Below are positions 13,644-34,272 of a stretch of 64,000 bases of DNA, piece after piece; the stretch's first letter is position 1; each line of letters begins with the position of its first letter. Both the position numbers and the translations under genes were made by a program. The stretch spans positions 3,410,001 through 3,474,000 of the forward strand of contig OY987298.1 in the NCBI GenBank assembly GCA_963920635.1, in the 5' to 3' direction. This DNA comes from Pseudeuparius sepicola. Its lineage: Eukaryota > Arthropoda > Insecta > Coleoptera > Anthribidae. The notes below the pieces were generated by a model. That model saw only the letters and a program-made list of their open reading frames with translations, searched no databases and was not told the DNA's origin.

Positions 13644-14917
13644 ATACACTGAGGAAAATGGACCAAATAAAGTTTCTATACGAATCCAACCGATTTGGGG
13701 TTAAAAGATTTCTATTTGTAACAGCACAGCACCGATTTGCCAAAAATAACCGAAATTGCTGTAGCAGCAAAAAACTTCTTGCTAAAATCATTTTGCCGCC
13801 ACAAATAGATATCTAATTGAGGTTAATGTAAAAATACACGAACCTATTTGCTACAAATAAGTTCTTATTTGTGGGAGCAAAATCTCTATTTGAGACAAAT
13901 AGGTTTATTTTGCTAAGATATTCTATTAGCGGTAAATGGAGACCCTATTTGTCACAAATCGGCTCTTATTAGCTACAAATAGGAACGTTATTTGATAATG
14001 GCTAGTGCGCATGCGATTTGTAAAATTTCTTCACCATGTCAACAGTTCGGTCAGTTTCGTTTGAGCCGTCTGAAGTACAAGTACGCCGCTTGCCACGCCG
14101 TGTTTATAAAAATGGTGGCCGGACAACTCTGATAAACTTTAACTCGTTACCATACTGCTGTATCTCGACTGTTAAACAAAATGATCCAAGCCTTGTGTTA
14201 TACTTTGGAGCTTCAACAACCAACTTCGTAAATTTAAATATTTGAAGATCTGCAGATATAGTAATTCATTATGTATACAAAACATGGAAGTGATAATACA
14301 AAAATTATACCACGGATTGTGACATTTTTTGAACAAGACTGGACTACGGAAATTTGAATACCTTTGGGTATTTATTCCTCCACGACAATGTTGGCAGAAC
14401 TGTAATTCTAAAAAATAAAAACACTTATTGGCAGTAAATAGGTCCACTTATTTGCCATAAGAAAGTTAATAGGTCCATCTATTAACCACAGCAAAGTTAT
14501 CTTTTAGTGGCAGGTAAAAAGTCTATTTGCTCCAATAAGAATTATTATTTGCTACAAATAGGTGTATACAGGGTGGCCCACCACGAACTGCATCGATCTA
14601 TATATGGAAAACTAAAAGTAGGAAAATTCTGAAAATTTGGCATCTTACTAATGCCGATGGGCGCTGCTCAACTAAAATACTTTGGTGAATCTGGCACGTC
14701 CGGTTATACCGGAAGTCAATATCAACTTTCTTATTTCAAATGGAACACCCTGTATATTATTGCATTTTTTGATTCTAGGCATCATTTTGGAACAAAAACA
14801 TACAACATGTCCCGTGTCTAAATCCAACCGTTTTTGAGATATTTGCATTTTTCCGAAAAAAATGACAGGTGCAGACCTAAAATCAATTAGCAATTTATAC
14901 GAGAGTAGTTAAGTAAA

Positions 14918-14995
14918 GCGGATCCTGGCTCAAAGATGGCCGCCATATGTGAGCCAGCTTCCGCATAAGGGTTTTGAGCCTGAGCCAGGATCCGC
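14918..14995. repeat. Terminal hairpin, left Polinton end
   Basis: GCGGATCCTGGCTCA (14918-14932) has a perfect inverse at 14981-14995, and a degenerate second inverse begins TGAGCCAGC at 14950. The hairpin starts 14 bases from the element end. Its mirror is at 33429-33506. Confidence 0.8.
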
Positions 14996-15140
14996 ATAGG
15001 GTTTTCGGGGATAAAATCTAGCGGTGGGGGGGATTTGTGTGGGGGGATCCCCTCCACTTTTTTTAGTATATATTTCGATGTTTGATTGGTAAAGTAGTAC
15101 ACAGTTCTCACTTTTAACTTAACTAAATAAGATTAAAAGT

Positions 15141-15461
15141 ATGGCATCGTTTGTGACCCATTTAAATAACAGTTTGTTCCTGAAGAAATTCATTAGGGTC
15201 CAAGATTTGGAAGTCAACCGAAAGTTTGAGGTACATGCATTTACGAAAATAAACACCAAGTTCGGCGAGAAGATATCCTTGGAATTCGACGATTTCAAAA
15301 CAATTTTACCGCAAAGGTTCACGGTAGAATTTACAGAAGAACGAATTGAGCAAGTAAACAAGGACATTTTCAACGGGCGAAAGTATTATCTTATTAGTTA
15401 TGGACCTGTCGGGAAAACAACTAATATTCAATTTTCCGTCCAAGAACCGGAACAGCTATAA
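15141..15461 (+). CDS. OB-fold/ssDNA-binding-like protein, left-arm copy
   Basis: 106 residues from an ATG that begins MASFVTHLNN. Visible features are FLKKFIRVQDLEVNRKFEV, KINTKFGEKISLEFDDF, ILPQRF, the spaced pair ERIEQVNKDIFNGRKYY and LISYG. This beta-rich pattern (K-Y-V--------T-YG--I---LDD----LP-RF, then KYYLI) recalls small proteins in insect virus-like elements that I associate with an OB-fold single-strand-binding role. No catalytic motif is present. It is the gene nearest the element end and is transcribed inward; a TATATATT box lies at 15067-15074. An identical mirror copy is at 32963-33283. If the role is right, it would bind ssDNA during element replication, although no polymerase is encoded here. 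The function is inferred from pattern only. Confidence 0.6.
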   Translation: MASFVTHLNNSLFLKKFIRVQDLEVNRKFEVHAFTKINTKFGEKISLEFDDFKTILPQRFTVEFTEERIEQVNKDIFNGRKYYLISYGPVGKTTNIQFSVQEPEQL

Positions 15462-15476
15462 AAATACTTTGGAGTC

Positions 15477-15824
15477 TCACATTCGAAAATTACAGAAACT
15501 AAAATATGAAATTGATATATATGAAATTAATAAGAACTTTAAACAATTAAAAATAAAATATATATAGCATAAGAGATGTTTCATTTCTTCTACCCATAGT
15601 AAATTAATAAAATAACAAACTACCCAGCAGGTGTACAACAAAGTAATAGTATAAAAAAAGTGCAAAACTGAAACTTGAATTAAAACCAAACACAATTTTT
15701 TCTTGCAGCTTGATGTAGCTCCAAACAAAAAATAATAATGCCTAATGATAAAAATTCTAACAAAAATAATAATTTCTGTGCCCTCTAAGGAAGTCCATAC
15801 ATAGTCCCCATGCAAATTCCCCAT
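15477..15824 (-). CDS. Possible small hydrophobic protein, left-arm copy (doubtful)
   Basis: 115 codons from an ATG (MGNLHGDYVW), then almost wholly hydrophobic and aromatic (FVRIFIIRHYYFLF, LLYTCWVVCYFINLLWV, LLISYISISYFSF), with room for three or four membrane segments. A TATAAAAG box on this strand lies about 100 bp upstream (15918-15925), followed by three GTTGGCGTCGAAA-like repeats. The base composition is AT-rich, so the frame may be open by chance. It ends 15 bp from the tail-to-tail neighbour. Treat as tentative. Confidence 0.25.
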   Translation of the reverse strand: MGNLHGDYVWTSLEGTEIIIFVRIFIIRHYYFLFGATSSCKKKLCLVLIQVSVLHFFYTITLLYTCWVVCYFINLLWVEEMKHLLCYIYFIFNCLKFLLISYISISYFSFCNFRM

Positions 15825-16048
15825 GTAAAGTCCCCATTTTAAGTCCCACTTAAGCCGCCCACTTTAGACGCCAACTTTCGACGCCAACTTTCGACGCCAA
15901 CGTCTCAGTTGGATGCAGTACTTTTATAAGGATCTACTAAGTAGGAGGAAGCTTTTCAGTTCCCACCTACAATTCTATAAACAGCCAATCCAGCGCAGAT
16001 AGTGACTCGAACCATTTTTGGCATAATTCCAGAGAAAGTTAACCCTTT

Positions 16049-16403
16049 CAGAGTTTTACACCCAACCGTTCAAATTAGTTACACCTTCACCTGGTTTTAG
16101 TACCTTGAATCTTTTTGTGCCGAGTCAACAAAAATGCAGACAAGTTTGCCCCCTTTTACTTTTATAGCAGGCTGTTCACATTCTTTAGACTTTCACCTGT
16201 TTCTAAATCTTCTTGCGCGACCCTTCCTTCAAGGGATAATCTTACATAACAATGATCCACTTTTAAATGTTTTTTGTCAGACTTTTTTTTTATAGTCCTG
16301 TAAATGGCATGTTATAAAAATTTACTGCCTGGTAGTTTTATAGCAGACTGTTCAAATTATTTAGATTTTCACCTGCTTGTAAATCTTCTCGTGCGACCCT
16401 ACC
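16049..16403 (-). promoter_or_regulatory. Three-copy 70-nt module ending in TATAAAA-like boxes, left arm
   Basis: Three imperfect direct repeats spaced about 110-180 bp apart. Each has an AGATT core, then CAGGTGAAAATCTAAATAAT or a variant, then TTGAACAGTCTGCTATAAAA or a variant (GTGAACAGCCTGCTATAAAA; TTGAACGGTTGGGTGTAAAA). No coding frame runs through. The TATA-like end and repetition suggest promoter or enhancer modules, or short noncoding transcripts. The module fills the gap between the hydrophobic frame and the G-W-F repeat gene. Function is unknown. Confidence 0.5.
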
Positions 16404-16675
16404 TGAGATTTTAATAAAAAAAGGCTTTCAATGTTAAAACTTAAATGAGAATATTTTGCTGTTATTGTTATTTTGATAAAAAAAACTGTGTACATTATTA
16501 ATATTCCACTTAAAATTCCTCGATAAAAATATTGCTTTAAAGTGGGTTAGTAAGGAATAGGTAAACAAAACTAAACAAGAAACCAGTATATAAATAAAAC
16601 AAACTAAAATTAATTAATGTTTTGTTTTATTAAAATAATTCATATATTTTGTTACAATAAACTTATATACAAATA

Positions 16676-17173
16676 TTAGCACTGTCGTTGTCTGCGTAGA
16701 CGGTCGAACCAACCTTCATAATATGCATAATTATAAGTCGTTCGATTTCGTATTATGTCCTCATTATTCGCAAATCGAAAATACCCTGCCACATAGCCAG
16801 ATTCGTATTCGATTTGACGCTGATGATTAAACCACCCTGCGTAGTACGCCTTATTATATGCAATGATATCAGATTTAGCCATGTAAATGTCATTAGCGTT
16901 CGCAAAACACTGACCGTATCTGATCCATCCATCTTGATATCCTGCACCATATTGAACTTTATCCATTTTCACGTCACCCTCCAGAAAACGCCTATTCTTA
17001 CCAGCCTGATGATCAAACCATCCCGCGTATAAACCTTCATTATAGTGCCTCACATGAGTGTCCCTTAATCGCCTAATTGGATTTGCGTTTTCTTCCGTTT
17101 TCCACTGACTATACGAACTCCATCCTGCACTGTATCCATCATCTGTCACTTTTCTTTTATTCTGAGAATACAT
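16676..17173 (-). CDS. G-W-F repeat protein, left-arm copy
   Basis: 165 residues counted from the ATG at 17173 (MYSQNKRK); the frame extends further only through a TTG. It consists of about six degenerate repeats of roughly 27 residues around a Y-x-x-[GA]-x-x-x-G-[WY]-[FI] core: YSAGWSSYSQW, YNEGLYAGWFDHQ, YGAGYQDGWIRYGQ, YNKAYYAGWFNHQ, YESGYVAGYFRFA, YNYAYYEGWFDRL. It has no signal peptide or membrane segment. I do not recognise the family; regular Tyr/Trp/Gly spacing suggests a repeat scaffold or binding protein. A TATAAAAG box and TCACTA initiator lie upstream (17249-17284), and an AATAAA signal follows the stop. It is divergent from the spliced gene at 17590. Confidence 0.65.
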   Translation of the reverse strand: MYSQNKRKVTDDGYSAGWSSYSQWKTEENANPIRRLRDTHVRHYNEGLYAGWFDHQAGKNRRFLEGDVKMDKVQYGAGYQDGWIRYGQCFANANDIYMAKSDIIAYNKAYYAGWFNHQRQIEYESGYVAGYFRFANNEDIIRNRTTYNYAYYEGWFDRLRRQRQC

Positions 17174-17248
17174 CTCAACGAGTGTTATAAACTTTTGCCA
17201 CAATTATCTAACTGAAGCAATATTTAATTCTTTGTATTGAATTGAATT

Positions 17249-17284
17249 TAGTGAATTTTGTTAAGGATGTGGCTGCCTTTTATA
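17249..17284 (-). promoter_or_regulatory. TATA plus initiator for the G-W-F repeat gene, left arm
   Basis: On the minus strand, TATAAAAG (17284-17277) is followed about 31 bp later by TCACTA (17254-17249), the spacing of an insect core promoter. Confidence 0.55.
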
Positions 17285-17480
17285 TTTAACGTAAGCATTG
17301 CCTATCCCCACTCAACAGCGTTGTCGTCTAATTAGAAAATAGAGCAATTTGAAGTAGAAAATTTTTTGGCAACGCCGAAGGGGTGGAGTTACCCCCACTC
17401 CCACCAGAGCAAAGTTAACGCCTAAATTAAAAAGTAGCAACGTTGAGAGCCATCCCCACCAACGCATTCATTTTAAAATC

Positions 17481-17517
17481 TACAAAAGGGTGTAGAAATT
17501 CAGCAAAAGCATCAGTT
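17481..17517 (+). promoter_or_regulatory. TATA-like box plus TCAGTT initiator of the spliced gene, left arm
   Basis: TACAAAAG at 17481-17488 and TCAGTT at 17512-17517. The spacing to the initiator A is 33 bp. The duplicated unit starts at 17522, just after this promoter, so the second gene copy has no equivalent. Confidence 0.55.
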
Positions 17518-17521
17518 TTCT

Positions 17522-19500
17522 AAATTTTGTTGAATTGTGTTCGAGTTTTGTCGTGTGTTATTTTTAAATTTATTACTTTGCTTATAATTATGAGTGTGTT
17601 CCAAACTAAGGCGATTGTCCACTACAATGCTGTTGTGAGGGTAAGTCAAAACTTATTTTTTATAATTATTAAATACGTTATTTCAATTTGCTTCGAGAAA
17701 CTATTTTGCTTTTTCGCATCAGAAAATTTTTAGCCAACTTTTTTCTTGTTAGCCGCAAGTTGGAGATTTTCTTATGCGAAAAATATTTTTTTATTTGCGA
17801 TATACTAACATTCAATAATTATTATAGTCACCATCTGCTTATAATCTCATCGAGACGCTTGCGGCAGAGGGGTCAGTTGAAAATTCATCTGAAGAAAACA
17901 ATGTTGATCATGTAAGTAGACATGTTTATGAATTCTAACAAATAATAAATGTTTATCTTATACTTATAGTATTCCGAAGTGGACGATGAAAGCATTAGAA
18001 GCGCAACATCGTTTGCTGTGTCGCAGATCGAGCGTGAGCTGGCACATGAACAATCGGTATATGTACAGCCTGCACAACCTGCCGAATCGACACATGTGCA
18101 GCCTGCGCAATTGACATATGTACAGCCTGAACAACCCGCACATGAATATTCGGCACATGTGCAGCCTGCGCAATTGACATATGTACAGCCTGAACAACCC
18201 GCACCTGAATACGAGCAACCCGCGCAACCTGCAGGGCATGCGTCGCCTGCTCAGTCTGAGCAAACCCACCGGCAGAACGTCTCCAGTCCTGTGAGGACTG
18301 TTGGGAAAAATATGGAGACGTTGAGAGCGGTTTATAACAGGGGGCGCCGCACAAACAGGTTTCCGGATGACAGCTTCGATTTTGAAGATCCAACAGCTGG
18401 AGGACGTCACAATTTGGAACTTAATAAAGTGCTGGAAGATAATGTTGTCGTCTTACAGCTTCAAAGTAATAAGCTGGCCAAAAATTTTGTTGAATTGTGT
18501 TCGAGTTTTGTCGTGTGTTATTTTTAAATTTATTACTTTGCTTATAATTATGAGTGTGTTCCAAACTAAGGCGATTGTCCACTACAATGCTGTTGTGAGG
18601 GTAAGTCAAAACTTATTTTTTTATAATTATTAAATACGTTATTTCAATTTGCTTCGAGAAACTATTTTGCTTTTTCGCATCAGAAAATTTTTAGCCAACT
18701 TTTTTCTTGTTAGCCGCAAGTTGGAGATTTTCTTATGCGAAAAATATTTTTTTATTTGCGATATACTAACATTCAATAATTATTATAGTCACCATCTGCT
18801 TATAATCTCATCGAGACGCTTGCGGCAGAGGGGTCAGTTGAAAATTCATCTGAAGAAAACAATGTTGAGCATGTAAGTAGACATGTTTATGAATTCTAAC
18901 AAATAATAAATGTTTATCTTATACTTATAGTATTCCGAAGTGGACGATGAAAGCATTAGAAGCGCAACATCGTTTGCTGTGTCGCAGATCGAGCGTGAGC
19001 TGGCACATGAACAATCGGCATATGTACAGCCTGCACAACCTACCGAATCGGCACATGTGCAGCCTGCGCAATTGACATATGTACAGCCTGAACAACCCGC
19101 ACCTGAATATTCGGCACATGTGCAGCCTGCGCAATTGACATATGTACAGCCTGAACAACCCGCACCTGAATATTCGGCATATGTACAGCCTGCACAACCT
19201 GCCGAATCGGCACATGTGCAGCCTGCGCAATTGACATATGTACAGCCTGAACAACCCGCACCTGAATATGAGCAACCCGCGCAACCTGCAGGGCATGCGT
19301 CGCCTGCTCAGTCTGAGCAAACCCACCGGCAGAACGTCTCCAGTCCTGTGAGGACTGTTGGGAAAAATATGGAGACGTTGAGAGCGGTTTATAACAGGGG
19401 GCGCCGCACAAACAGGTTTCCGGATGACAGCTTCGATTTTGAAGATCCAACAGCTGGAGGACGTCACAATTTGGAACTTAATAAAGTGCTGGAAGATAAT
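17522..19500 (+). repeat. Tandem duplication (960-bp period) of the spliced gene, left arm
   Basis: 17522 onward and 18482 onward match through the 5' leader, two introns and most of exon 3. The join is within GCCAAAAA/TTTTGTTGAATTG: the first copy stops at the NKLAKN codons and runs straight into the second copy's leader. The inner copy has extra internal repeats, so the match is not of equal length throughout. The same duplication is present in the right arm, so it predates or was copied with the inverted repeat. Confidence 0.85.
17590..18527 (+). CDS. Three-exon Pro/Gln-rich repeat protein, outer copy, 3'-truncated (left arm)
   Basis: Exons 17590-17640, 17828-17911 and 17970-18527, with GTAAGT donors and TATAG acceptors, all phase 0. 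The 230-residue product starts MSVFQTKAIVHYNAVVR. It has an acidic Ser/Glu segment from exon 2 and then YVQPAQPAE / HVQPAQLTYVQPEQP repeats. The part after NKLAKN is replaced by 13 residues read from the adjacent copy's leader, so the coiled-coil tail of the inner copy is lost. The family is unknown. The copy has the promoter but no proper 3' end, so its transcript may splice onward into the inner copy. Confidence 0.6.
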
Positions 19501-19665
19501 GTTGTCGTCTTACAGCTTCAAAGTAATAAGCTGGCCAAAAACAAGGCTGGTTTAAAAAATAAAATAGATAGGTTAGATAAATTAAGAAAAATTTTAGTAA
19601 ATAGGATTAGTATAATAGAAATAGATGAAGCGCGTGTGAATAAAATATTAACTAGTTATAAGTAA
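18550..19665 (+). CDS. Three-exon Pro/Gln-rich repeat protein, inner full-length copy (left arm)
   Basis: Exons 18550-18600, 18789-18872 and 18931-19665, with the same splice signals as the outer copy and 289 residues in total. Exon 3 encodes ERELAHEQ, then about five VQPAQ/VQPEQPA units, a QNVSSPVRTVGKNMETLR stretch and a basic NRGRRTNRF patch. A C-terminal helix rich in Leu, Lys and Ile (LELNKVLEDNVVVLQLQ, then LKNKIDRLDKLRKILVN) probably forms a coiled coil. I do not recognise the family; a structural or DNA-associated role is possible. It lacks its own copy of the upstream TATA/initiator, so expression may depend on read-through or splicing from the outer copy's promoter. Confidence 0.65.
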
Positions 19666-19908
19666 GCATAAGTTGAATCATATATATATAATATTACACA
19701 TAGTTTTAAACCAACGCTTTGTTATTCATTTCTCACCCAATACCATTATAAACAGCAAGCAATAAAATTTTATTACGTGCAATACAGAGTCGCTCGGTAG
19801 CTAAATACAAAAGTAATATTTTTCTCCTAAGCAGACCATACTTTAGCATAAGCGTACGTGCACACTTCCGGCTGAGGGAGATGTAAGAAAGGTAAAAAAT
19901 ATAGTCAG

Positions 19909-19981
19909 GGGATTTTACATAGCGATCGTCCTCGCTCGAACTCGCACGGACAAGCGGTAGCAAGCGGATACCTAAAATCCC
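19909..19981. repeat. Hairpin-like GGGATTTTA...TAAAATCCC repeat, copy 2 (left arm)
   Basis: The arms are GGGATTTTA and TAAAATCCC, extended by an imperfect CATAGCGAT / ATCCGCTTG pairing, around a GC-rich loop with GTCC/GGAC complementarity. It lies in a 325-340-bp unit duplicated with the 3' end of the Cys-rich gene; the sister copy is at 20244-20306. The frame at 19733-19963 is not supported as a gene. Confidence 0.55.
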
Positions 19982-20243
19982 AGAACATTTGTAGTATCAA
20001 ACTGTAGTTTTTAAGTAAATATTTTATTAAACGTTTATTTTCTTATATTCGAGAATTTAATTTAAATAATAATAATAAAACAATTATCCAATAATACATT
20101 TCATTTACAATAATACCAATGGTCTAGTTTTTGCACCTGTTTTACATATTAAGCATGTATCTTGCCGAAAAGCTATGCTTTAGCATAACCGTACGTGCAC
20201 ACTTCCGGCTGAGCGATGTAAGAAAGGTAAAAAATACAGCCAG

Positions 20244-20306
20244 GGGATTTTACATAGCGATCATCCTCACACGGACAAGCAGTAGCATGCGACTACCTAA
20301 AATCCC
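20244..20306. repeat. Hairpin-like GGGATTTTA...TAAAATCCC repeat, copy 1 (left arm)
   Basis: Same arms as 19909-19981 with a shorter, diverged loop. It is followed toward lower coordinates by a duplicated fragment of the Cys-rich gene 3' end (CTTTTCGGCAAGATACATGC on the minus strand, compared with CTTTTCGGCAAGACACCTGC in the gene). Confidence 0.55.
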
Positions 20307-20453
20307 AGAACATTTGTAGGTATCAAACTGTAGTTTTTAATAAAATATTTTATTTCACGTTTATTTTCTTATAGTCAGGAATTTAATTTATAATAATAAT
20401 AATAAGAACAGAATTATCCAATAATACATTTTATTTACAATAATACATTTTAT

Positions 20454-20954
20454 TTACAATAATGGTATAATTTTTGCACCTGCTTTACACATCAAGCAGG
20501 TGTCTTGCCGAAAAGCTATGTAAAGCTTTTCTTTACAGGCACTACACCGCATGAATCTTTGCAAAGGCATTTCTGTCAAAGAAAAATGTAAAGTTTCATG
20601 CCGATGCTTCGCATTGTCGGTGAAACCATTCAGGGAAACCTCTGTAAAATCTACCACATACGCACGGTAACAATTTAGGCACAAACGCGCCCTTTCTGTT
20701 ACCTTTACATATGCGGCAGATACACAGAGGCCCCCCACTGTCCAGTTATTATAACCCTCGGTCGGGTTAATGGGTACACTTTTCGCCACGACGGAGTCAT
20801 CGCGGCCAACGTCTACCCCTTCATCTTCGTCACTAGCATCATCGTCGTCAATGTCGTCGATGTCTCTTCTCAATTCTGCAGGCACCGTTTTCTCAATCTC
20901 TTCTTTTTCTTCTAACGCAAGTTGGTATAGGGAATTATGTATGGAGGCAGCCAT
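20454..20954 (-). CDS. Acidic, Cys-rich zinc-ribbon-like protein, left-arm copy
   Basis: 166 residues from an ATG (MAASIHNSLYQLALEEKEEI). An acidic block (DDIDDDDASDEDEG) is followed by a Cys/His-rich half: CLNC, the KHRHETLH pair, CSAC and CLMC. These CxxC pairs suggest one or two zinc ribbons or a RING-like fold. No family is recognised; a transcriptional or regulatory role is a guess. It has a clean core promoter (TATAAAA plus TCAGTT) and an AATAAA overlapping the stop region. Part of its 3' end is duplicated downstream with a hairpin-like repeat. Confidence 0.65.
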   Translation of the reverse strand: MAASIHNSLYQLALEEKEEIEKTVPAELRRDIDDIDDDDASDEDEGVDVGRDDSVVAKSVPINPTEGYNNWTVGGLCVSAAYVKVTERARLCLNCYRAYVVDFTEVSLNGFTDNAKHRHETLHFSLTEMPLQRFMRCSACKEKLYIAFRQDTCLMCKAGAKIIPLL

Positions 20955-20989
20955 TGTTATTAAATTTAATTTGTTTGGAGAAAAACTGT

Positions 20990-21026
20990 AACTGATGTCT
21001 ATTGAGATATCTCCAGAGTTTTTATA
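20990..21026 (-). promoter_or_regulatory. Core promoter of the Cys-rich gene, left arm
   Basis: On the minus strand TATAAAA (21026-21020) is followed by TCAGTT (20995-20990). The A of the initiator lies 33 bp after the first T of the TATA box. Confidence 0.7.
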
Positions 21027-21465
21027 GTCTAAAACATCAACCTGTACGAGATGTCTAGGAGGGGATCCTAGTGTTTTATGTCCTATTTAAATATATGCTA
21101 TAAAAAGTGATACATTTTTTTAAATTTTAATTCATCCATTTCAGAAAACTGTATTTTTTGCTGTTTTTTATTTTGAAATAAATGGAACAACTAATCTGCA
21201 TATTTGAGTTATTCCAAATTTCATAAAGATTGCAACTACTGATTTTCTTTTATGAATTGACGTGTAATCAATACAATGAAAATATTAGATTTTTAATACA
21301 GGTCGTGCCCTCTATTTCTGTAGGGAAACAACTACAGTCGTGCTTCAAAAGTACTACCAATTGATCGATATTTCGCCGAATACTTTACCCTTGCAACAGG
21401 TATGCGCAAGGGGGTTCGAAAGATACCGCTGGGTGGTTCGAAGGCCCCGCCGTCGAGGGCGCGCT

Positions 21466-21858
21466 ATGAGTCTCAGGAACGCGGCGGCTGTCACAAAGAG
21501 AGAGATGGGAGATATGGAACTGAAAATTTGGAGCACTCCAAAGGCAAATGATCTAAAGGCAAAGGCAAATGATCTAAAGGCAAAGGCAAATGATTCAAAG
21601 GCAAAGGCAAATGATTCGAAAGCAAAGGCAAATGATCCAAAGGCAAAGGCAAATGATCGGAAGGCAAAGGTAAATGATCCGAAGGCAAGTGATCCGAAGG
21701 CAAATGATCCAAAGGCAAAGGCAAATGATTCAAAGGCAAAGGCAAATGATTCGAAGGCAAAGGCAAATGATCCAAAGGCAAAGGCAAATGATCGGAAGGC
21801 AAAGGTAAATGATCCGAAGGCAAGTGATCCGAAGGCAAATGATCCAAAGGCAAATTAA
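21466..21858 (+). CDS. Minisatellite-encoded Lys/Ala/Asn/Asp repeat ORF, left arm
   Basis: 130 codons from the ATG at 21466 (MSLRNAAAVTKREMGDMELK). After about 25 ordinary residues the rest is a KAKANDx seven-residue repeat with x = L, S, P or R and occasional short units (KASDP, KANDP). The 21-bp units keep the frame in both arms despite a length change, which supports translation but does not prove it. The upstream frame extends only from a GTG. A CAG-GTATG donor-like site lies at about 21398. The tail is strongly charged and probably disordered; function is unknown. An AATAAA follows near 21898, and the ATPase ATG is 93 bp downstream. Confidence 0.4.
   Translation: MSLRNAAAVTKREMGDMELKIWSTPKANDLKAKANDLKAKANDSKAKANDSKAKANDPKAKANDRKAKVNDPKASDPKANDPKAKANDSKAKANDSKAKANDPKAKANDRKAKVNDPKASDPKANDPKAN
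21538..21855 (+). repeat. 21-bp minisatellite, left arm
   Basis: About 15 units of the AAGGCAAAGGCAAATGATCC type, with variation at the last codon and some 12-15-bp short units. Confidence 0.85.
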
Positions 21859-21950
21859 AAATATAGTATGAATGTATTGTAACAATGTGTTAGTATATAA
21901 TAAAGATAAAATTAAGTATAATTGTCAGTGTTTTATTCCCCACCTACGTG

Positions 21951-22517: not shown

Positions 22518-22529
22518 AACGTTGTTTTA

Positions 22530-23165: not shown

Positions 23166-23190
23166 TTTGGCGGTTCGTTCACCGAGAGAA

Positions 23191-24129: not shown

Positions 24130-24162
24130 TGTTCAACTGCTCAATTCCAACTTAAAATGAAA

Positions 24163-24510: not shown

Positions 24511-24546
24511 TTTGTAACTAACTGTATATTGACAGTAATTATACTT

Positions 24547-25470: not shown

Positions 25471-25498
25471 GTTGGCTACTAATAAAGATACCGAGTCA

Positions 25499-26401: not shown

Positions 26402-26493
26402 CACGTAGGTGGGGAATAAAACACTGACAATTATACTTAATTTTATCTTTATTATATACTAACACATTGTTACAATACATTCATACTATATTT

Positions 26494-26970
26494 TTAATTT
26501 GCCTTTGGATCATTTGCCTTCGGATCACTTGCCTTCGGATCATTTGCCTTTGCCTTCCGATCATTTGCCTTTGCCTTCGGATCATTTGCCTTTGCCTTCC
26601 GATCATTTGCCTTTGCCTTCGGATCATTTGCCTTTGCCTTCCGATCATTTGCCTTTGCCTTTGGATCATTTGCCTTTGCCTTCGAATCATTTGCCTTTGC
26701 CTTTGAATCATTTGCCTTTGCCTTTGGATCATTTGCCTTCGGATCACTTGCCTTCGGATCATTTACCTTTGCCTTCCGATCATTTGCCTTTGCCTTTGGA
26801 TCATTTGCCTTTGCTTTCGAATCATTTGCCTTTGCCTTTGAATCATTTGCCTTTGCCTTTAGATCATTTGCCTTTGCCTTTAGATCATTTGCCTTTGGAG
26901 TGCTCCAAATTTTCAGTTCCATATCTCCCATCTCTCTCTTTGTGACAGCCGCCGCGTTCCTGAGACTCAT
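26494..26970 (-). CDS. Minisatellite-encoded repeat ORF, right arm (four units longer)
   Basis: Mirror of 21466-21858 with 158 codons. Four additional 21-bp units (alternating KAKANDR and KAKANDP) make it 84 bp longer without breaking the frame. Confidence 0.4.
   Translation of the reverse strand: MSLRNAAAVTKREMGDMELKIWSTPKANDLKAKANDLKAKANDSKAKANDSKAKANDPKAKANDRKAKVNDPKASDPKANDPKAKANDSKAKANDSKAKANDPKAKANDRKAKANDPKAKANDRKAKANDPKAKANDRKAKANDPKASDPKANDPKAN
26497..26898 (-). repeat. 21-bp minisatellite, right arm
   Basis: Same minisatellite with about 19 units; this is the largest length difference between the two terminal repeats. Confidence 0.85.
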
Positions 26971-27409
26971 AGCGCGCCCTCGACGGCGGGGCCTTCGAAC
27001 CACCCAGCGGTATCTTTCGAACCCCCTTGCGCATACCTGTTGCAAGGGTAAAGTATTCGGCGAAATATCGATCAATTGGTAGTACTTTTGAAGCACGACT
27101 GTAGTTGTTTCCCTACAGAAATAGAGGGCACGACCTGTATTAAAAATCTAATATTTTCATTGTATTGATTACACGTCAATTCATAAAAGAAAATCAGTAG
27201 TTGCAATCTTTATGAAATTTGGAATAACTCAAATATGCAGATTAGTTGTTCCATTTATTTCAAAATAAAAAACAGCAAAAAATACAGTTTTCTGAAATGG
27301 ATGAATTAAAATTTAAAAAAATGTATCACTTTTTATAGCATATATTTAAATAGGACATAAAACACTAGGATCCCCTCCTAGACATCTCGTACAGGTTGAT
27401 GTTTTAGAC

Positions 27410-27446
27410 TATAAAAACTCTGGAGATATCTCAATAGACATCAGTT
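27410..27446 (+). promoter_or_regulatory. Core promoter of the Cys-rich gene, right arm
   Basis: TATAAAA at 27410-27416 and TCAGTT at 27441-27446, about 36 bp upstream of the ATG. Confidence 0.7.
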
Positions 27447-27481
27447 ACAGTTTTTCTCCAAACAAATTAAATTTAATAACA

Positions 27482-27982
27482 ATGGCTGCCTCCATACATA
27501 ATTCCCTATACCAACTTGCGTTAGAAGAAAAAGAAGAGATTGAGAAAACGGTGCCTGCAGAATTGAGAAGAGACATCGACGACATTGACGACGATGATGC
27601 TAGTGACGAAGATGAAGGGGTAGACGTTGGCCGCGATGACTCCGTCGTGGCGAAAAGTGTACCCATTAACCCGACCGAGGGTTATAATAACTGGACAGTG
27701 GGGGGCCTCTGTGTATCTGCCGCATATGTAAAGGTAACAGAAAGGGCGCGTTTGTGCCTAAATTGTTACCGTGCGTATGTGGTAGATTTTACAGAGGTTT
27801 CCCTGAATGGTTTCACCGACAATGCGAAGCATCGGCATGAAACTTTACATTTTTCTTTGACAGAAATGCCTTTGCAAAGATTCATGCGGTGTAGTGCCTG
27901 TAAAGAAAAGCTTTACATAGCTTTTCGGCAAGACACCTGCTTGATGTGTAAAGCAGGTGCAAAAATTATACCATTATTGTAA
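27482..27982 (+). CDS. Acidic, Cys-rich zinc-ribbon-like protein, right-arm copy
   Basis: Mirror of 20454-20954, identical protein. The promoter is at 27410-27446 and the ATG context is AACAATGGC. Confidence 0.65.
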   Translation: MAASIHNSLYQLALEEKEEIEKTVPAELRRDIDDIDDDDASDEDEGVDVGRDDSVVAKSVPINPTEGYNNWTVGGLCVSAAYVKVTERARLCLNCYRAYVVDFTEVSLNGFTDNAKHRHETLHFSLTEMPLQRFMRCSACKEKLYIAFRQDTCLMCKAGAKIIPLL

Positions 27983-28128
27983 ATAAAATGTATTATTGTA
28001 AATAAAATGTATTATTGGATAATTCTGTTCTTATTATTATTATTTAAATTAAATTCCTGACTATAAGAAAATAAACGTGAAATAAAATATTTTATTAAAA
28101 ACTACAGTTTGATACCTACAAATGTTCT

Positions 28129-28191
28129 GGGATTTTAGGTAGTCGCATGCTACTGCTTGTCCGTGTGAGGATGATCGCTATGTAAAATCCC
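28129..28191. repeat. Hairpin-like repeat, copy 1 (right arm)
   Basis: Mirror of 20244-20306. Confidence 0.55.
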
Positions 28192-28453
28192 CTGGCTGTA
28201 TTTTTTACCTTTCTTACATCGCTCAGCCGGAAGTGTGCACGTACGGTTATGCTAAAGCATAGCTTTTCGGCAAGATACATGCTTAATATGTAAAACAGGT
28301 GCAAAAACTAGACCATTGGTATTATTGTAAATGAAATGTATTATTGGATAATTGTTTTATTATTATTATTTAAATTAAATTCTCGAATATAAGAAAATAA
28401 ACGTTTAATAAAATATTTACTTAAAAACTACAGTTTGATACTACAAATGTTCT

Positions 28454-28526
28454 GGGATTTTAGGTATCCGCTTGCTACCGCTTGTCCGTGCGAGTTCGAG
28501 CGAGGACGATCGCTATGTAAAATCCC
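28454..28526. repeat. Hairpin-like repeat, copy 2 (right arm)
   Basis: Mirror of 19909-19981. Confidence 0.55.
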
Positions 28527-28769
28527 CTGACTATATTTTTTACCTTTCTTACATCTCCCTCAGCCGGAAGTGTGCACGTACGCTTATGCTAAAGTATGGT
28601 CTGCTTAGGAGAAAAATATTACTTTTGTATTTAGCTACCGAGCGACTCTGTATTGCACGTAATAAAATTTTATTGCTTGCTGTTTATAATGGTATTGGGT
28701 GAGAAATGAATAACAAAGCGTTGGTTTAAAACTATGTGTAATATTATATATATATGATTCAACTTATGC

Positions 28770-29873
28770 TTACTTATAACTAGTTAATATTTTATTCACA
28801 CGCGCTTCATCTATTTCTATTATACTAATCCTATTTACTAAAATTTTTCTTAATTTATCTAACCTATCTATTTTATTTTTTAAACCAGCCTTGTTTTTGG
28901 CCAGCTTATTACTTTGAAGCTGTAAGACGACAACATTATCTTCCAGCACTTTATTAAGTTCCAAATTGTGACGTCCTCCAGCTGTTGGATCTTCAAAATC
29001 GAAGCTGTCATCCGGAAACCTGTTTGTGCGGCGCCCCCTGTTATAAACCGCTCTCAACGTCTCCATATTTTTCCCAACAGTCCTCACAGGACTGGAGACG
29101 TTCTGCCGGTGGGTTTGCTCAGACTGAGCAGGCGACGCATGCCCTGCAGGTTGCGCGGGTTGCTCATATTCAGGTGCGGGTTGTTCAGGCTGTACATATG
29201 TCAATTGCGCAGGCTGCACATGTGCCGATTCGGCAGGTTGTGCAGGCTGTACATATGCCGAATATTCAGGTGCGGGTTGTTCAGGCTGTACATATGTCAA
29301 TTGCGCAGGCTGCACATGTGCCGAATATTCAGGTGCGGGTTGTTCAGGCTGTACATATGTCAATTGCGCAGGCTGCACATGTGCCGATTCGGTAGGTTGT
29401 GCAGGCTGTACATATGCCGATTGTTCATGTGCCAGCTCACGCTCGATCTGCGACACAGCAAACGATGTTGCGCTTCTAATGCTTTCATCGTCCACTTCGG
29501 AATACTATAAGTATAAGATAAACATTTATTATTTGTTAGAATTCATAAACATGTCTACTTACATGCTCAACATTGTTTTCTTCAGATGAATTTTCAACTG
29601 ACCCCTCTGCCGCAAGCGTCTCGATGAGATTATAAGCAGATGGTGACTATAATAATTATTGAATGTTAGTATATCGCAAATAAAAAAATATTTTTCGCAT
29701 AAGAAAATCTCCAACTTGCGGCTAACAAGAAAAAATTTTCTGATGCGAAAAAGCAAAATAGTTTCTCGAAGCAAATTGAAATAACGTATTTAATAATTAT
29801 AAAAAAATAAGTTTTGACTTACCCTCACAACAGCATTGTAGTGGACAATCGCCTTAGTTTGGAACACACTCAT
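28770..29873 (-). CDS. Three-exon Pro/Gln-rich repeat protein, inner full-length copy (right arm)
   Basis: Mirror of 18550-19665: exons 29873-29823, 29646-29563 and 29504-28770, coding for the same 289 residues. The first intron lacks 12 bp (near 29730) that are present in the left arm; the splice sites are unaffected. Confidence 0.65.
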
Positions 29874-29895
29874 AATTATAAGCAAAGTAATAAAT

Positions 29896-30834
29896 TTAAA
29901 AATAACACACGACAAAACTCGAACACAATTCAACAAAATTTTTGGCCAGCTTATTACTTTGAAGCTGTAAGACGACAACATTATCTTCCAGCACTTTATT
30001 AAGTTCCAAATTGTGACGTCCTCCAGCTGTTGGATCTTCAAAATCGAAGCTGTCATCCGGAAACCTGTTTGTGCGGCGCCCCCTGTTATAAACCGCTCTC
30101 AACGTCTCCATATTTTTCCCAACAGTCCTCACAGGACTGGAGACGTTCTGCCGGTGGGTTTGCTCAGACTGAGCAGGCGACGCATGCCCTGCAGGTTGCG
30201 CGGGTTGCTCGTATTCAGGTGCGGGTTGTTCAGGCTGTACATATGTCAATTGCGCAGGCTGCACATGTGCCGAATATTCAGGTGCGGGTTGTTCAGGCTG
30301 TACATATGTCAATTGCGCAGGCTGCACATGTGTCGATTCGGCAGGTTGTGCAGGCTGTACATATACCGATTGTTCATGTGCCAGCTCACGCTCGATCTGC
30401 GACACAGCAAACGATGTTGCGCTTCTAATGCTTTCATCGTCCACTTCGGAATACTATAAGTATAAGATAAACATTTATTATTTGTTAGAATTCATAAACA
30501 TGTCTACTTACATGATCAACATTGTTTTCTTCAGATGAATTTTCAACTGACCCCTCTGCCGCAAGCGTCTCGATGAGATTATAAGCAGATGGTGACTATA
30601 ATAATTATTGAATGTTAGTATATCGCAAATAAAAAAATATTTTTCGCATAAGAAAATCTCCAACTTGCGGCTAACAAGAAAAAAGTTGGCTAAAAATTTT
30701 CTGATGCGAAAAAGCAAAATAGTTTCTCGAAGCAAATTGAAATAACGTATTTAATAATTATAAAAAAATAAGTTTTGACTTACCCTCACAACAGCATTGT
30801 AGTGGACAATCGCCTTAGTTTGGAACACACTCAT
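29896..30834 (-). CDS. Three-exon Pro/Gln-rich repeat protein, outer truncated copy (right arm)
   Basis: Mirror of 17590-18527: exons 30834-30784, 30595-30512 and 30453-29896. The left copy reads QPAHEYSAH where the right reads QPAPEYSAH, a rare difference between the arms. Confidence 0.6.
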
Positions 30835-30906
30835 AATTATAAGCAAAGTAATAAATTTAAAAATAACACACGACAAAACTCGAACACAATTAAACAAAAT
30901 TTAGAA

Positions 30907-30943
30907 AACTGATGCTTTTGCTGAATTTCTACACCCTTTTGTA
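30907..30943 (-). promoter_or_regulatory. TATA-like box plus initiator of the spliced gene, right arm
   Basis: Mirror of 17481-17517: TACAAAAG at 30943-30936 and TCAGTT at 30912-30907 on the minus strand. Confidence 0.55.
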
Positions 30944-31139
30944 GATTTTAAAATGAATGCGTTGGTGGGGATGGCTCTCAACGTTGCTACTTTTTAATTT
31001 AGGCGTTAACTTTGCTCTGGTGGGAGTGGGGGTAACTCCACCCCTTCGGCGTTGCCAAAAAATTTTCTACTTCAAATTGCTCTATTTTCTAATTAGACGA
31101 CAACGCTGTTGAGTGGGGATAGGCAATGCTTACGTTAAA

Positions 31140-31175
31140 TATAAAAGGCAGCCACATCCTTAACAAAATTCACTA
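31140..31175 (+). promoter_or_regulatory. TATA plus initiator for the G-W-F repeat gene, right arm
   Basis: TATAAAAG at 31140-31147 and TCACTA at 31170-31175; mirror of 17249-17284. Confidence 0.55.
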
Positions 31176-31250
31176 AATTCAATTCAATACAAAGAATTAA
31201 ATATTGCTTCAGTTAGATAATTGTGGCAAAAGTTTATAACACTCGTTGAG

Positions 31251-31748
31251 ATGTATTCTCAGAATAAAAGAAAAGTGACAGATGATGGATACAGTGCAGG
31301 ATGGAGTTCGTATAGTCAGTGGAAAACGGAAGAAAACGCAAATCCAATTAGGCGATTAAGGGACACTCATGTGAGGCACTATAATGAAGGTTTATACGCG
31401 GGATGGTTTGATCATCAGGCTGGTAAGAATAGGCGTTTTCTGGAGGGTGACGTGAAAATGGATAAAGTTCAATATGGTGCAGGATATCAAGATGGATGGA
31501 TCAGATACGGTCAGTGTTTTGCGAACGCTAATGACATTTACATGGCTAAATCTGATATCATTGCATATAATAAGGCGTACTACGCAGGGTGGTTTAATCA
31601 TCAGCGTCAAATCGAATACGAATCTGGCTATGTGGCAGGGTATTTTCGATTTGCGAATAATGAGGACATAATACGAAATCGAACGACTTATAATTATGCA
31701 TATTATGAAGGTTGGTTCGACCGTCTACGCAGACAACGACAGTGCTAA
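31251..31748 (+). CDS. G-W-F repeat protein, right-arm copy
   Basis: Mirror copy of 16676-17173 with the same 165 residues and no disabling change. The promoter is mirrored at 31140-31175. Confidence 0.65.
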   Translation: MYSQNKRKVTDDGYSAGWSSYSQWKTEENANPIRRLRDTHVRHYNEGLYAGWFDHQAGKNRRFLEGDVKMDKVQYGAGYQDGWIRYGQCFANANDIYMAKSDIIAYNKAYYAGWFNHQRQIEYESGYVAGYFRFANNEDIIRNRTTYNYAYYEGWFDRLRRQRQC

Positions 31749-32020
31749 TATTTGTATATAAGTTTATTGTAACAAAATATATGAATTATTTTAATAAAAC
31801 AAAACATTAATTAATTTTAGTTTGTTTTATTTATATACTGGTTTCTTGTTTAGTTTTGTTTACCTATTCCTTACTAACCCACTTTAAAGCAATATTTTTA
31901 TCGAGGAATTTTAAGTGGAATATTAATAATGTACACAGTTTTTTTTATCAAAATAACAATAACAGCAAAATATTCTCATTTAAGTTTTAACATTGAAAGC
32001 CTTTTTTTATTAAAATCTCA

Positions 32021-32375
32021 GGTAGGGTCGCACGAGAAGATTTACAAGCAGGTGAAAATCTAAATAATTTGAACAGTCTGCTATAAAACTACCAGGCAGT
32101 AAATTTTTATAACATGCCATTTACAGGACTATAAAAAAAAAGTCTGACAAAAAACATTTAAAAGTGGATCATTGTTATGTAAGATTATCCCTTGAAGGAA
32201 GGGTCGCGCAAGAAGATTTAGAAACAGGTGAAAGTCTAAAGAATGTGAACAGCCTGCTATAAAAGTAAAAGGGGGCAAACTTGTCTGCATTTTTGTTGAC
32301 TCGGCACAAAAAGATTCAAGGTACTAAAACCAGGTGAAGGTGTAACTAATTTGAACGGTTGGGTGTAAAACTCTG
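32021..32375 (+). promoter_or_regulatory. Three-copy 70-nt module, right arm
   Basis: Mirror of 16049-16403. The copies are at 32021-32091, 32198-32266 and 32301-32375. Confidence 0.5.
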
Positions 32376-32599
32376 AAAGGGTTAACTTTCTCTGGAATTA
32401 TGCCAAAAATGGTTCGAGTCACTATCTGCGCTGGATTGGCTGTTTATAGAATTGTAGGTGGGAACTGAAAAGCTTCCTCCTACTTAGTAGATCCTTATAA
32501 AAGTACTGCATCCAACTGAGACGTTGGCGTCGAAAGTTGGCGTCGAAAGTTGGCGTCTAAAGTGGGCGGCTTAAGTGGGACTTAAAATGGGGACTTTAC

Positions 32600-32947
32600 A
32601 TGGGGAATTTGCATGGGGACTATGTATGGACTTCCTTAGAGGGCACAGAAATTATTATTTTTGTTAGAATTTTTATCATTAGGCATTATTATTTTTTGTT
32701 TGGAGCTACATCAAGCTGCAAGAAAAAATTGTGTTTGGTTTTAATTCAAGTTTCAGTTTTGCACTTTTTTTATACTATTACTTTGTTGTACACCTGCTGG
32801 GTAGTTTGTTATTTTATTAATTTACTATGGGTAGAAGAAATGAAACATCTCTTATGCTATATATATTTTATTTTTAATTGTTTAAAGTTCTTATTAATTT
32901 CATATATATCAATTTCATATTTTAGTTTCTGTAATTTTCGAATGTGA
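32600..32947 (+). CDS. Possible small hydrophobic protein, right-arm copy (doubtful)
   Basis: Mirror of 15477-15824, identical in sequence. The TATAAAAG box is at about 32499-32506, with the GTTGGCGTCGAAA repeats at 32523-32561. The same caution applies. Confidence 0.25.
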   Translation: MGNLHGDYVWTSLEGTEIIIFVRIFIIRHYYFLFGATSSCKKKLCLVLIQVSVLHFFYTITLLYTCWVVCYFINLLWVEEMKHLLCYIYFIFNCLKFLLISYISISYFSFCNFRM

Positions 32948-32962
32948 GACTCCAAAGTATTT

Positions 32963-33283
32963 TTATAGCTGTTCCGGTTCTTGGACGGAAAATTGAATAT
33001 TAGTTGTTTTCCCGACAGGTCCATAACTAATAAGATAATACTTTCGCCCGTTGAAAATGTCCTTGTTTACTTGCTCAATTCGTTCTTCTGTAAATTCTAC
33101 CGTGAACCTTTGCGGTAAAATTGTTTTGAAATCGTCGAATTCCAAGGATATCTTCTCGCCGAACTTGGTGTTTATTTTCGTAAATGCATGTACCTCAAAC
33201 TTTCGGTTGACTTCCAAATCTTGGACCCTAATGAATTTCTTCAGGAACAAACTGTTATTTAAATGGGTCACAAACGATGCCAT
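32963..33283 (-). CDS. OB-fold/ssDNA-binding-like protein, right-arm copy
   Basis: Mirror copy of 15141-15461, same 106 residues and same upstream TATA-like box. Both copies are intact, so the element carries two identical genes. This fits recent formation of the inverted repeat or continuing gene conversion. Confidence 0.6.
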   Translation of the reverse strand: MASFVTHLNNSLFLKKFIRVQDLEVNRKFEVHAFTKINTKFGEKISLEFDDFKTILPQRFTVEFTEERIEQVNKDIFNGRKYYLISYGPVGKTTNIQFSVQEPEQL

Positions 33284-33428
33284 ACTTTTAATCTTATTTA
33301 GTTAAGTTAAAAGTGAGAACTGTGTACTACTTTACCAATCAAACATCGAAATATATACTAAAAAAAGTGGAGGGGATCCCCCCACACAAATCCCCCCCAC
33401 CGCTAGATTTTATCCCCGAAAACCCTAT

Positions 33429-33506
33429 GCGGATCCTGGCTCAGGCTCAAAACCCTTATGCGGAAGCTGGCTCACATATGGCGGCCATCTTTGAGCCAGG
33501 ATCCGC
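33429..33506. repeat. Terminal hairpin, right Polinton end
   Basis: Mirror image of the hairpin at 14918-14995, with the same perfect 15-bp arms. Confidence 0.8.
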
Positions 33507-34272
33507 TTTACTTAACTACTTACGAGGAAACCGCGAAATTTCAAAACGAATTTTTGGCATCGTGTAACAGAAGCCCTGACCTAGTGATCTCTGCTGAGAA
33601 ATAAATCCGTTCTTATACAGGGTGTTCACAAAATATGAATGAAAATTACATTCAAAATGTGGTTAAATCTCGAAATTTTCAAATGGAAACCCCCATTTTT
33701 TTTAATGCAATCTTATTCATCACTAAAAATAAGGATAACTTTGTGTAAAGTTTCCCATACCTAAATGCAGTAATTTTTGATTAATTTACGAAAAACCCAC
33801 TTTTCGTCCATAAAATGCGGTGTTTGTTTAACGCTTGGAAAATCATATTAGCCGTGGACGTTGAAAAGACAATCGCGGCTGAGAAAATGTCACTTGGTTT
33901 ATAAATTATTGTCGACAATAATGCCGGCGGGTTAAATTACCTACACAAACGAAGATTATTTTAATTTGTTTATTATCTACGGAGAATGCAACATAAAGTC
34001 ATATCAAGAACGTGCGATATATTTGGGGCTCGCTCTGCACATAAAACAAAACCATCGCCAAACACAAGTACAAAATTTTAAACTGTATGGACGTGTCAGA
34101 GAAAAATCACTTAAAAATAAGCCTATTGTTACTGGCCTAAATTACACTACATTAAAACACTAAGAGACTTTAAAAGAAATAACAAAATTTTAAACAGTAA
34201 GGATGTATCAAAGCAAAAATACAGTGTTAAAGGCAAGCAGAGACTAGAGAAGAAACCTTCTTCTTGTTCGTG

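What the first reader, a model, noticed from the sequence alone, without database searches (positions are those of the whole stretch)
14904..33520. Polinton/Maverick-type element whose terminal inverted repeats make up over 80% of its length
Seen: identical 6-bp flanks (TACGAG), AG...CT ends, and mirror arms of 7595 and 7667 bp around a 3355-bp core. Known: Polintons have 6-bp duplications and AG/CT ends, and their inverted repeats are usually hundreds of bases to about 1-2 kb. Inference: a distinct architecture or lineage of virus-like transposon, in which two mirror sets of accessory genes flank a minimal integrase/ATPase core. This is the strongest candidate for an undescribed system in the window.
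Basis: partly seen in the sequence, partly recalled or inferred. Interest (0 to 1): 0.88.

Follow-up and report, generated by a model that had tools for sequence, protein, structure and literature searches.

The report
Palindromic satellite of a virus-like transposon
The 18.6-kb mirror-image element is real and is one of dozens of copies of a stripped-down, self-mirrored derivative of a complete virus-like Polinton transposon living in the same genome; it has lost the replication and shell genes, kept both ends and the integrase, and still spread, which suggests that it parasitises its full-length relative.

Summary
Observation confirmed: 14904-33520, arms 7595 and 7667 bp (82%), core 3355 bp, TACGAG on both sides, (AGT)2...(ACT)2 ends; another copy of the host repeat in the window shows the empty site. 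The host genome (769 Mb) explains it. The same core (ATPase, DUF8207, integrase) occurs in two forms. Form A (76 junction matches, 4 copies read) is a complete Polinton: 107-bp terminal repeats, double-jelly-roll capsid protein, PLA2-domain protein, PolB. Form P (57 junction matches, this one included) lacks the PolB and capsid modules; each is replaced by an inverted copy of the opposite end. All 7 P copies read share both breakpoints, so P arose once; all 7 have perfect, different 6-bp duplications, so P itself integrates. The two arms of one copy differ at 0-5 sites (one exception, 17), arms of different copies at 9-34, without left/right memory: arms are homogenised within elements. Best explanation: a snap-back, defective-interfering-type satellite, replicated by A's PolB in trans. 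One hybrid with A's PolB-side join and P's arm, and two of the converse, were read. Trans-replication and packaging are inferred, not shown.

The parts
14898..14903 (.). target-site duplication, left (TACGAG)
   Evidence: empty site
14904..22498 (+). left arm of the palindrome (7595 bp)
14904..15010 (+). outermost 107 bp of the left arm = the whole terminal inverted repeat of form A
21490..21491 (.). junction J1 in left arm: inverted terminal part of form A joined, with one extra base, to the region beside the ATPase
21948..22517 (+). truncated copy of the zinc-finger/ATPase reading frame; the arm ends inside it
22498..22499 (.). junction J2: core end joined to inverted, truncated ATPase; the PolB module of form A is missing here
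22499..25853 (-). single-copy core (3355 bp)
22530..23165 (-). 211-aa ORF, no family match; a 211-aa ORF is in the same place in form A
23191..24129 (-). integrase (rve 1.7e-14; chromodomain 4e-4, below its curated cut-off), 312 aa
24163..24510 (-). 115-aa ORF, no family above its cut-off; a 115-aa ORF is in the same place in form A
24547..25470 (-). DUF8207-type protein, 307 aa (named through its homologues, which carry PF26634; no direct Pfam match)
25499..26404 (-). A32-like packaging ATPase (Pox_A32 4e-11) with two C2H2 fingers in frame at its N-terminus; spans the core/right-arm boundary
25854..33520 (+). right arm of the palindrome (7667 bp)
26945..26946 (.). junction J1 in right arm; the capsid module of form A is missing here
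27482..27982 (+). 166-aa Cys-containing ORF, mirrored at 20454-20954 (-); a 166-aa ORF lies in the matching place of form A
31221..31748 (+). 175-aa ORF with repeated YxxGWF-like units, mirrored at 16676-17203 (-)
33414..33520 (-). outermost 107 bp of the right arm = terminal inverted repeat of form A
33521..33526 (.). target-site duplication, right (TACGAG)
34480..35330 (-). another copy of the interrupted host repeat, without the element (empty site, one TACGAG)

Best explanation
It is a palindromic, non-autonomous satellite ('form P') of a complete Polinton ('form A') in the same genome. Shown: P has A's termini, core and left-terminal region; at J1 A's capsid module is replaced by an inverted copy of the other end, at J2 A's PolB module is replaced by an inverted copy of the now-chimeric end; both joins lack microhomology; all 7 P copies read share them; P copies carry matched, different 6-bp duplications; the arms of one copy are mostly kept alike. 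Inferred: the joins arose by end joining or template switching between linear replication intermediates; because both ends of P are authentic Polinton ends, A's PolB replicates P in trans; the displaced strand snaps back into a hairpin with a 6.4-7.7-kb stem, so that one arm templates the other and the arms are homogenised; P's own integrase (or A's) inserts the product. This is the architecture of snap-back defective-interfering genomes of other linear DNA viruses, here inherited as a transposon.
For: Two forms at 10 integrase copies read (6 P, 4 A). A carries a DJR capsid protein (PF21738 2.6e-77), a PLA2-domain protein (1.2e-11) and a 1245-aa ORF 69.5% identical over 1057 aa to a PF03175-positive PolB of the genome. 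A's PolB module (4851 bp), capsid module (3816 bp) and a 717-bp segment are absent from the window and all 12 P stretches, present in 4 of 4 A copies. Genome counts: J2-P 57, J2-A 76, J1-A 77, J1-P 151, controls 0; 74 of 76 J2-A have J1-A upstream, 0 of 57 J2-P do. TSDs matched in 7 of 7 P and 2 of 2 A with both ends read. Arms pair by copy: within-copy differences 2, 1, 1, 5, 0, 17; between copies 9-34; true pairing best of 720; between-copy U-U 20.1, D-D 20.0, U-D 20.1.
Against: One of six complete arm pairs (L023/L024) differs at 17 sites spread over the arm, as much as different copies do; by gap (tandem-repeat) pattern only 3 of 6 pairs are each other's nearest. Arm-to-arm gene conversion after integration would also make arms pair by copy. 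No extrachromosomal DNA, expression or helper dependence was seen or testable. P's core genes are open, but P is so young that this says little about selection. The ten copies were picked by me, mostly from the top of a hit list, not at random.
Confidence: 0.8

Rival explanations
1. Form P is a PolB-less derivative that no longer replicates as linear DNA; it moves by cut-and-paste or by copying from chromosomal copies with the integrase alone, and its arms are kept alike by gene conversion between the two arms in the chromosome.
For: The integrase is retained and open in nearly all copies (6 of 128 listed matches carry stops, A and P together). Palindrome arms in chromosomes do convert each other (recalled).
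Against: J1 and J2 are joins of opposite ends in inverted orientation, expected of linear intermediates; P keeps a length of 16.1-18.6 kb close to 17.5 and 19.4 kb of the two A copies read to both ends, as if a packaged or replicated length mattered; A/P hybrids of both kinds exist, which shows exchange between forms but not where it happens.
Confidence: 0.25
2. Form P is an autonomous, distinct Polinton lineage that has always had giant terminal repeats.
For: 57 junction matches and own target duplications show that it spread.
Against: Core nearly identical to form A (1-11 differences in 1559 columns); no PolB or capsid module; the left arm ends inside a truncated ATPase gene; J1 cuts the end of a 142-aa gene that is whole in A.
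Confidence: 0.04
3. Assembly artefact: a collapsed or mirrored contig end, or a polishing product of one arm.
For: Arms are nearly identical; such palindromes are hard to assemble.
Against: 57 places on ten contigs with the same join, different matched hexamers in 7 of 7 copies read, real arm differences, empty site in the window.
Confidence: 0.01

Closest known systems
Polinton/Maverick elements (vertebrate set, PMC8097293; Spodoptera Sf Maverick 1 and 2, PMC5803895)
   Same: 6-bp duplications; (AGT)2//(ACT)2 end motif; A32-like ATPase, integrase with chromodomain; a protein of about 305 aa listed between ATPase and integrase in Sf (ORF2), as DUF8207 is here (position and size alike, homology not tested); form A adds PolB with an endonuclease VII-like part and a PLA2-domain protein, as in Sf Mavericks
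   Different: Terminal repeats 46-1447 bp in the vertebrate set against 6.4-7.7 kb in form P; form P lacks PolB and every recognised capsid gene
Polintons without capsid genes (PMC4028283, passages seen)
   Same: Loss of the major capsid gene is already described: nine such elements also lacked protease and ATPase
   Different: Form P keeps the ATPase, loses PolB as well, and replaces the lost modules by mirrored ends
Snap-back defective-interfering genomes of adeno-associated virus (PMC8235507, abstract and outline seen)
   Same: Snap-back (self-mirrored) subgenomes carrying only part of the genes of a linear DNA virus, co-existing with the complete genome
   Different: AAV is said to replicate by rolling hairpin (listing), not protein priming; its snap-backs are particle genomes, here the form is inherited and amplified in a genome; interference not tested here
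Mirror-image terminal rearrangements of poxviruses and symmetric recombinants of adenovirus (recalled, no paper read)
   Same: Expansion of a terminal repeat by copying one end onto the other with loss of the replaced genes
   Different: Other virus groups; seen as variants, not as a chromosomal transposon family
MITE-type non-autonomous DNA transposons (recalled)
   Same: Deletion derivative mobilised by a full-length relative's enzymes
   Different: Form P is nearly as long as its parent, keeps the integrase, and is made of mirrored ends, not of a short internal deletion

Membership tests
Polinton/Maverick (autonomous) | 6-bp target-site duplication | tested here: met
   7 of 7 P copies, 2 of 2 A copies with both ends read
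Polinton/Maverick (autonomous) | AG...CT ends, (AGT)2//(ACT)2 motif | tested here: met
   motif as described in PMC8097293 section 7
Polinton/Maverick (autonomous) | RVE integrase with chromodomain | tested here: met
   PF00665 1.7e-14; PF00385 4e-4, below its curated cut-off
Polinton/Maverick (autonomous) | A32/FtsK-like ATPase | tested here: met
   PF04665 4e-11; 2239 homologues at E <= 0.001
Polinton/Maverick (autonomous) | protein-primed PolB | tested here: not met
   Form P: no ORF over 312 aa, form A's PolB module absent. Form A: PolB by homology; no direct PF03175 match of its own ORF
Polinton/Maverick (autonomous) | double-jelly-roll major capsid protein | tested here: not met
   Form P: module absent. 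Form A: met, PF21738 2.6e-77
Polinton/Maverick (autonomous) | adenain-like protease | tested here: inconclusive
   No family hit for the 142-, 240- and 249-aa ORFs of form A; none among the P ORFs scanned
Polinton/Maverick (autonomous) | terminal inverted repeats of the published size (46-1447 bp in vertebrates) | tested here: not met
   P 6.4-7.7 kb; A 107 bp; range
Snap-back defective-interfering genome (works like) | one end duplicated inverted, both termini authentic | tested here: met
Snap-back defective-interfering genome (works like) | loss of replicase and capsid genes; complete helper in the same host | tested here: met
Snap-back defective-interfering genome (works like) | replication depends on the helper's polymerase | not testable with these tools
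   needs cells or animals
Snap-back defective-interfering genome (works like) | interferes with the helper | not testable with these tools
   needs cells or animals
Ginger1 transposons | 4-bp TSD and TGTNR ends | tested here: not met
   6-bp TSD, AGT ends; Ginger features from PMC2836005 passages

The most novel reading that the evidence does not exclude
Polintons have heritable defective-interfering-type parasites: palindromic snap-back genomes that borrow the polymerase (and perhaps the shell) of a complete Polinton, are homogenised as hairpins during replication, and spread through the germ line as a transposon family; palindrome formation recurs in other Polinton families of the same genome. 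This would be genomic evidence that animal Polintons replicate as linear extrachromosomal DNA, and a natural satellite that might restrain them.
Probability: 0.5. Interest if true: 0.85.

Novelty: new variant of a known kind. Interest (0 to 1): 0.75.

Why it matters
How Polintons multiply in animals is largely inferred. A satellite that lacks the polymerase, keeps the ends, has arms homogenised element by element and still integrated with perfect target duplications looks like the footprint of replication outside the chromosome. With 57 P-type and 76 A-type junction matches in one genome, helper dependence, interference and packaging become directly testable. It also warns that long-TIR 'new lineages' of Polintons may be defective derivatives.

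Tried and rejected
Relatives by protein in viral contigs and prokaryote genomes: none confirmed. DUF8207 by fold: AlphaFold model (pLDDT 76.8, pTM 0.44); viral library one hit at E <= 0.001, a DUF8207 protein of a Cotesia bracovirus; PDB none at that level. Papers: 'DUF8207' 0; six phrases for non-autonomous, defective or palindromic Polinton/Maverick 0; Polinton with snap-back/defective-interfering terms: 33 papers hold two or more terms, none of the 20 listed mentions Polintons; Polinton/Maverick with palindrome, helper, satellite and TIR-length terms: 5 papers, listing only seen. One library of open-licence papers; most subscription journals are not in it.

Assembly mirroring, a free-standing lineage and Ginger membership were considered and rejected (see rivals and membership test). 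Form A as the derived form was rejected: P carries truncated pieces (ATPase, end of the 142-aa gene) of genes that are whole in A.

Pieces dropped: L025/L026 left out of the arm-pairing test because the inner boundary of its upstream arm was not found, so 6 of 7 copies were used; its row in the first core piece is misaligned and ignored. PF04665 search: the scored list was filled largely by other families and shows nothing at the inverted PolB pairs; uninformative there. PF21738 did not complete. The third protein search and the second fold-prediction job were not used.
Full report
Observation. The arms differ by 4 substitutions and 4 indel blocks. The repeat finder's extra 17 bases outside are not mirror images. 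The window holds another copy of the host repeat into which it inserted: joined flanks with one TACGAG align across the insertion point to 34480-35330 on the minus strand, 323 of 340 and 480 of 505 aligned bases identical. So the whole 18.6 kb is one insertion with a 6-bp duplication.

Genes in the window. On the minus strand the core region reads: A32-like ATPase with two in-frame C2H2 fingers (25499-26404), DUF8207-type protein (24547-25470), 115-aa ORF, integrase with rve and a weak chromodomain match (23191-24129), 211-aa ORF. The DUF8207 name comes from its 66 homologues, which carry PF26634; the protein itself had no such match. The left arm ends inside a truncated copy of the ATPase frame (21948-22517). 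No ORF exceeds 312 aa, too short for an unspliced PolB or major capsid gene. In the two homologue tables several ATPases and DUF8207 proteins lie on contigs of equal length (for example 3347, 4411, 2884, 4889 and 9278 bases), which suggests that the gene pair is conserved; the contigs themselves were not read. The only structural match of DUF8207 at E <= 0.001 is a bracovirus DUF8207 protein; PMC5803895 reports a partial Maverick in a Cotesia bracovirus circle (section 11 part 1 read).

The genome. The window is C1:3410001-3474000 of a 769,049,646-base assembly in 16 contigs. The integrase has 128 listed matches, most of them 98-99% identical; 6 of the 128 carry stops (a lower bound, as only the best candidates are scored). 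I read 10 kb on each side of ten integrase copies, chosen by me mostly from the top of the list. Six are built like the window (form P), four are not (form A).

Form A. Its ends are a 107-bp inverted repeat, the outermost 107 bp of P's arms. Two copies read to both ends have matched hexamers (TATATC, CATGCG) and lengths of 19,386 and 17,451 bp, the second with internal deletions. Beside the shared core it has, on the ATPase side, a PLA2-domain protein, a 240-aa ORF, a double-jelly-roll capsid protein of 402 aa (PF21738 2.6e-77) and a 142-aa ORF; on the other side a 1245-aa ORF on the opposite strand and a 249-aa ORF. The 1245-aa ORF has no direct PF03175 hit but an endonuclease VII-like part; it is 69.5% identical over 1057 aa to a PF03175-positive ORF of this genome, so it is PolB; Sf Maverick POLB also has a weak endonuclease VII match. 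No protease was recognised. The end motif (AGT)2//(ACT)2 with perfect 6-bp duplications is that of vertebrate Mavericks, whose terminal repeats measure 46-1447 bp (PMC8097293, passages and section 7).

How P differs from A. Three changes separate them. J1: beside the ATPase, where A continues into the end of the 142-aa gene and the capsid module, P continues into an inverted copy of A's left-terminal region; the join has one extra base and no microhomology. J2: after the 211-aa gene, where A continues into PolB, P continues into an inverted ATPase fragment and the same arm; the join is blunt. A third change removes a 717-bp segment with a 176-aa ORF. A's PolB module (4851 bp), capsid module (3816 bp) and the 717-bp segment are found in 4 of 4 A copies and in neither the window nor any of the 12 P stretches. 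J1 and J2 are letter-identical over 17-18 bases in all 7 P copies (J1 in all 13 arms checked, J2 in 6 of 6; window J2), so P has one origin.

Counts. Patterns across the joins: J2-P 57 places (55 exact, 2 with one mismatch), J2-A 76, J1-A 77, J1-P 151 (as far as listed, one or more per arm, local tandem copies included); reversed control patterns 0 in every case. 74 of 76 J2-A have J1-A upstream and 0 of 57 J2-P do. The exceptions: 2 J2-A without J1-A, both read: one is a form A with a deletion over the J1 site, the other is a hybrid with the PolB-side join but P's arm on the capsid side. 3 J1-A without J2-A, 2 of 3 read: both have the capsid-side join and P's arm on the PolB side, with one extra base at J2; the third was not read, but J1-P matches lie beside it. 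The first hybrid is what a step-by-step origin (J1 first, then J2) predicts; recombination between A and P in the shared core would make both kinds. I cannot tell these apart.

P moved. Seven of seven P copies have perfect hexamers, all different (TACGAG, GCCATA, TACAAA, GTCTAG, AACTTC, GCGGTA, AATATA). Core divergence is small: in 1559 gap-free columns of the integrase side P-P mean 2.76, A-A 4.0, A-P 4.43 differences; the window copy is the most diverged P copy (7-8 from the others, which differ among themselves by 0-2). P is therefore young and integrated many times after it formed. No date in years was estimated.

The arms are homogenised. In 6159 gap-free columns the two arms of one copy differ at 2, 1, 1, 5, 0 and 17 sites (window, L015, L017, L019, L021, L023), different copies at 9-34. 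The true pairing is the best of all 720 (sum 26, mean 105). Between copies, same-side and opposite-side comparisons are equal (20.1, 20.0, 20.1), so no memory of left and right remains. The tandem-repeat (gap) pattern is less clear: differing gap columns within copies are 98, 21, 672, 31, 0 and 60, against 22-1736 between copies, and only 3 of 6 pairs (window, L015, L021) are each other's nearest by that measure. L023, with 17 differences spread over the arm, is the outlier in substitutions; L017 is the outlier in gaps.

Mechanism. I infer that P arose by joining ends of linear replication intermediates, that both its ends are recognised by A's PolB, and that the displaced strand folds back on itself so that one arm templates the other. 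The closest parallel that I saw in print is the snap-back defective-interfering genome of adeno-associated virus (PMC8235507, abstract and outline); poxvirus and adenovirus end-mirroring are recalled. Capsid-less Polintons are already described (PMC4028283, passages); the mirrored, PolB-less, ATPase-retaining form is what I did not find in the searches named under Tried and rejected. P's lengths (16,090-18,617 bp, by hand) stay near A's, which would fit a packaged length, but packaging is not shown. The main rival is arm-to-arm conversion in the chromosome.

Not only this family. I built 86 PolB loci from the listed PF03175 matches (the weakest rows at the end of the table were left out, and the list itself is capped): 6 pairs lie within 20 kb of each other, and 6 of 6 are inverted, none in tandem. 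For one (C5:31.30 Mb) a 500-bp stretch 1.3-1.8 kb outside the polymerase match and its exact mirror position are 99.8% identical inverted; a second pair of points 2 kb further out does not match. Palindrome formation probably recurs in other Polinton families here, with PolB kept in the arms; the other five pairs were not read.

Verdict. Confidence is high for the derivation, moderate for replication in trans.

Noticed in passing
G000 C5:31297250-31309203, C7:27332072-27342571, C3:42016954-42028194, C3:44255499-44260540, C11:39471801-39479224, C2:74764059-74779479: Six pairs of PolB genes within 20 kb, all inverted to each other: probable palindromic derivatives of other Polinton families, with PolB inside the arms; one checked at two mirror points (one matches at 99.8%, the outer one does not).
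   Followed up: partly
window 26249-26401 (-): Two C2H2 zinc fingers in frame before the ATPase; the 120 listed homologues align over 73-84% of the query, leaving this part out in those aligned. A 300-aa frame stands in the same place in form-A copy L014, a 229-aa one in L010.
   Followed up: partly
G000: The genome is rich in Polintons: further ATPase and PolB families with many copies of equal score and length (for example ATPase frames of 262 and 243 aa, PolB frames of 1254 aa).
   Followed up: no
G000 C2:73.87 and C3:59.14 Mb (L043, L044), C4:57.80 Mb (L042): Hybrid elements: PolB side replaced but capsid-side join kept (two read), and the converse (one).
   Followed up: partly
window 17700-19700 and 21539-21855: Tandem duplications in the arms whose copy numbers differ between elements; the two arms of one element agree closely in some (3 of 6 pairs nearest to each other) but not in others.
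   Followed up: partly
window 44726-49618: Satellite array, 288-bp unit, 17 copies, 99% alike; a diverged stretch of it (about 84%) lies at 5857-6133.
   Followed up: no
G000 C1-C10: All 57 J2-P and 76 J2-A places of this family lie on contigs C1-C10, none on C11-C16, although other PolB loci are common on C11.
   Followed up: no
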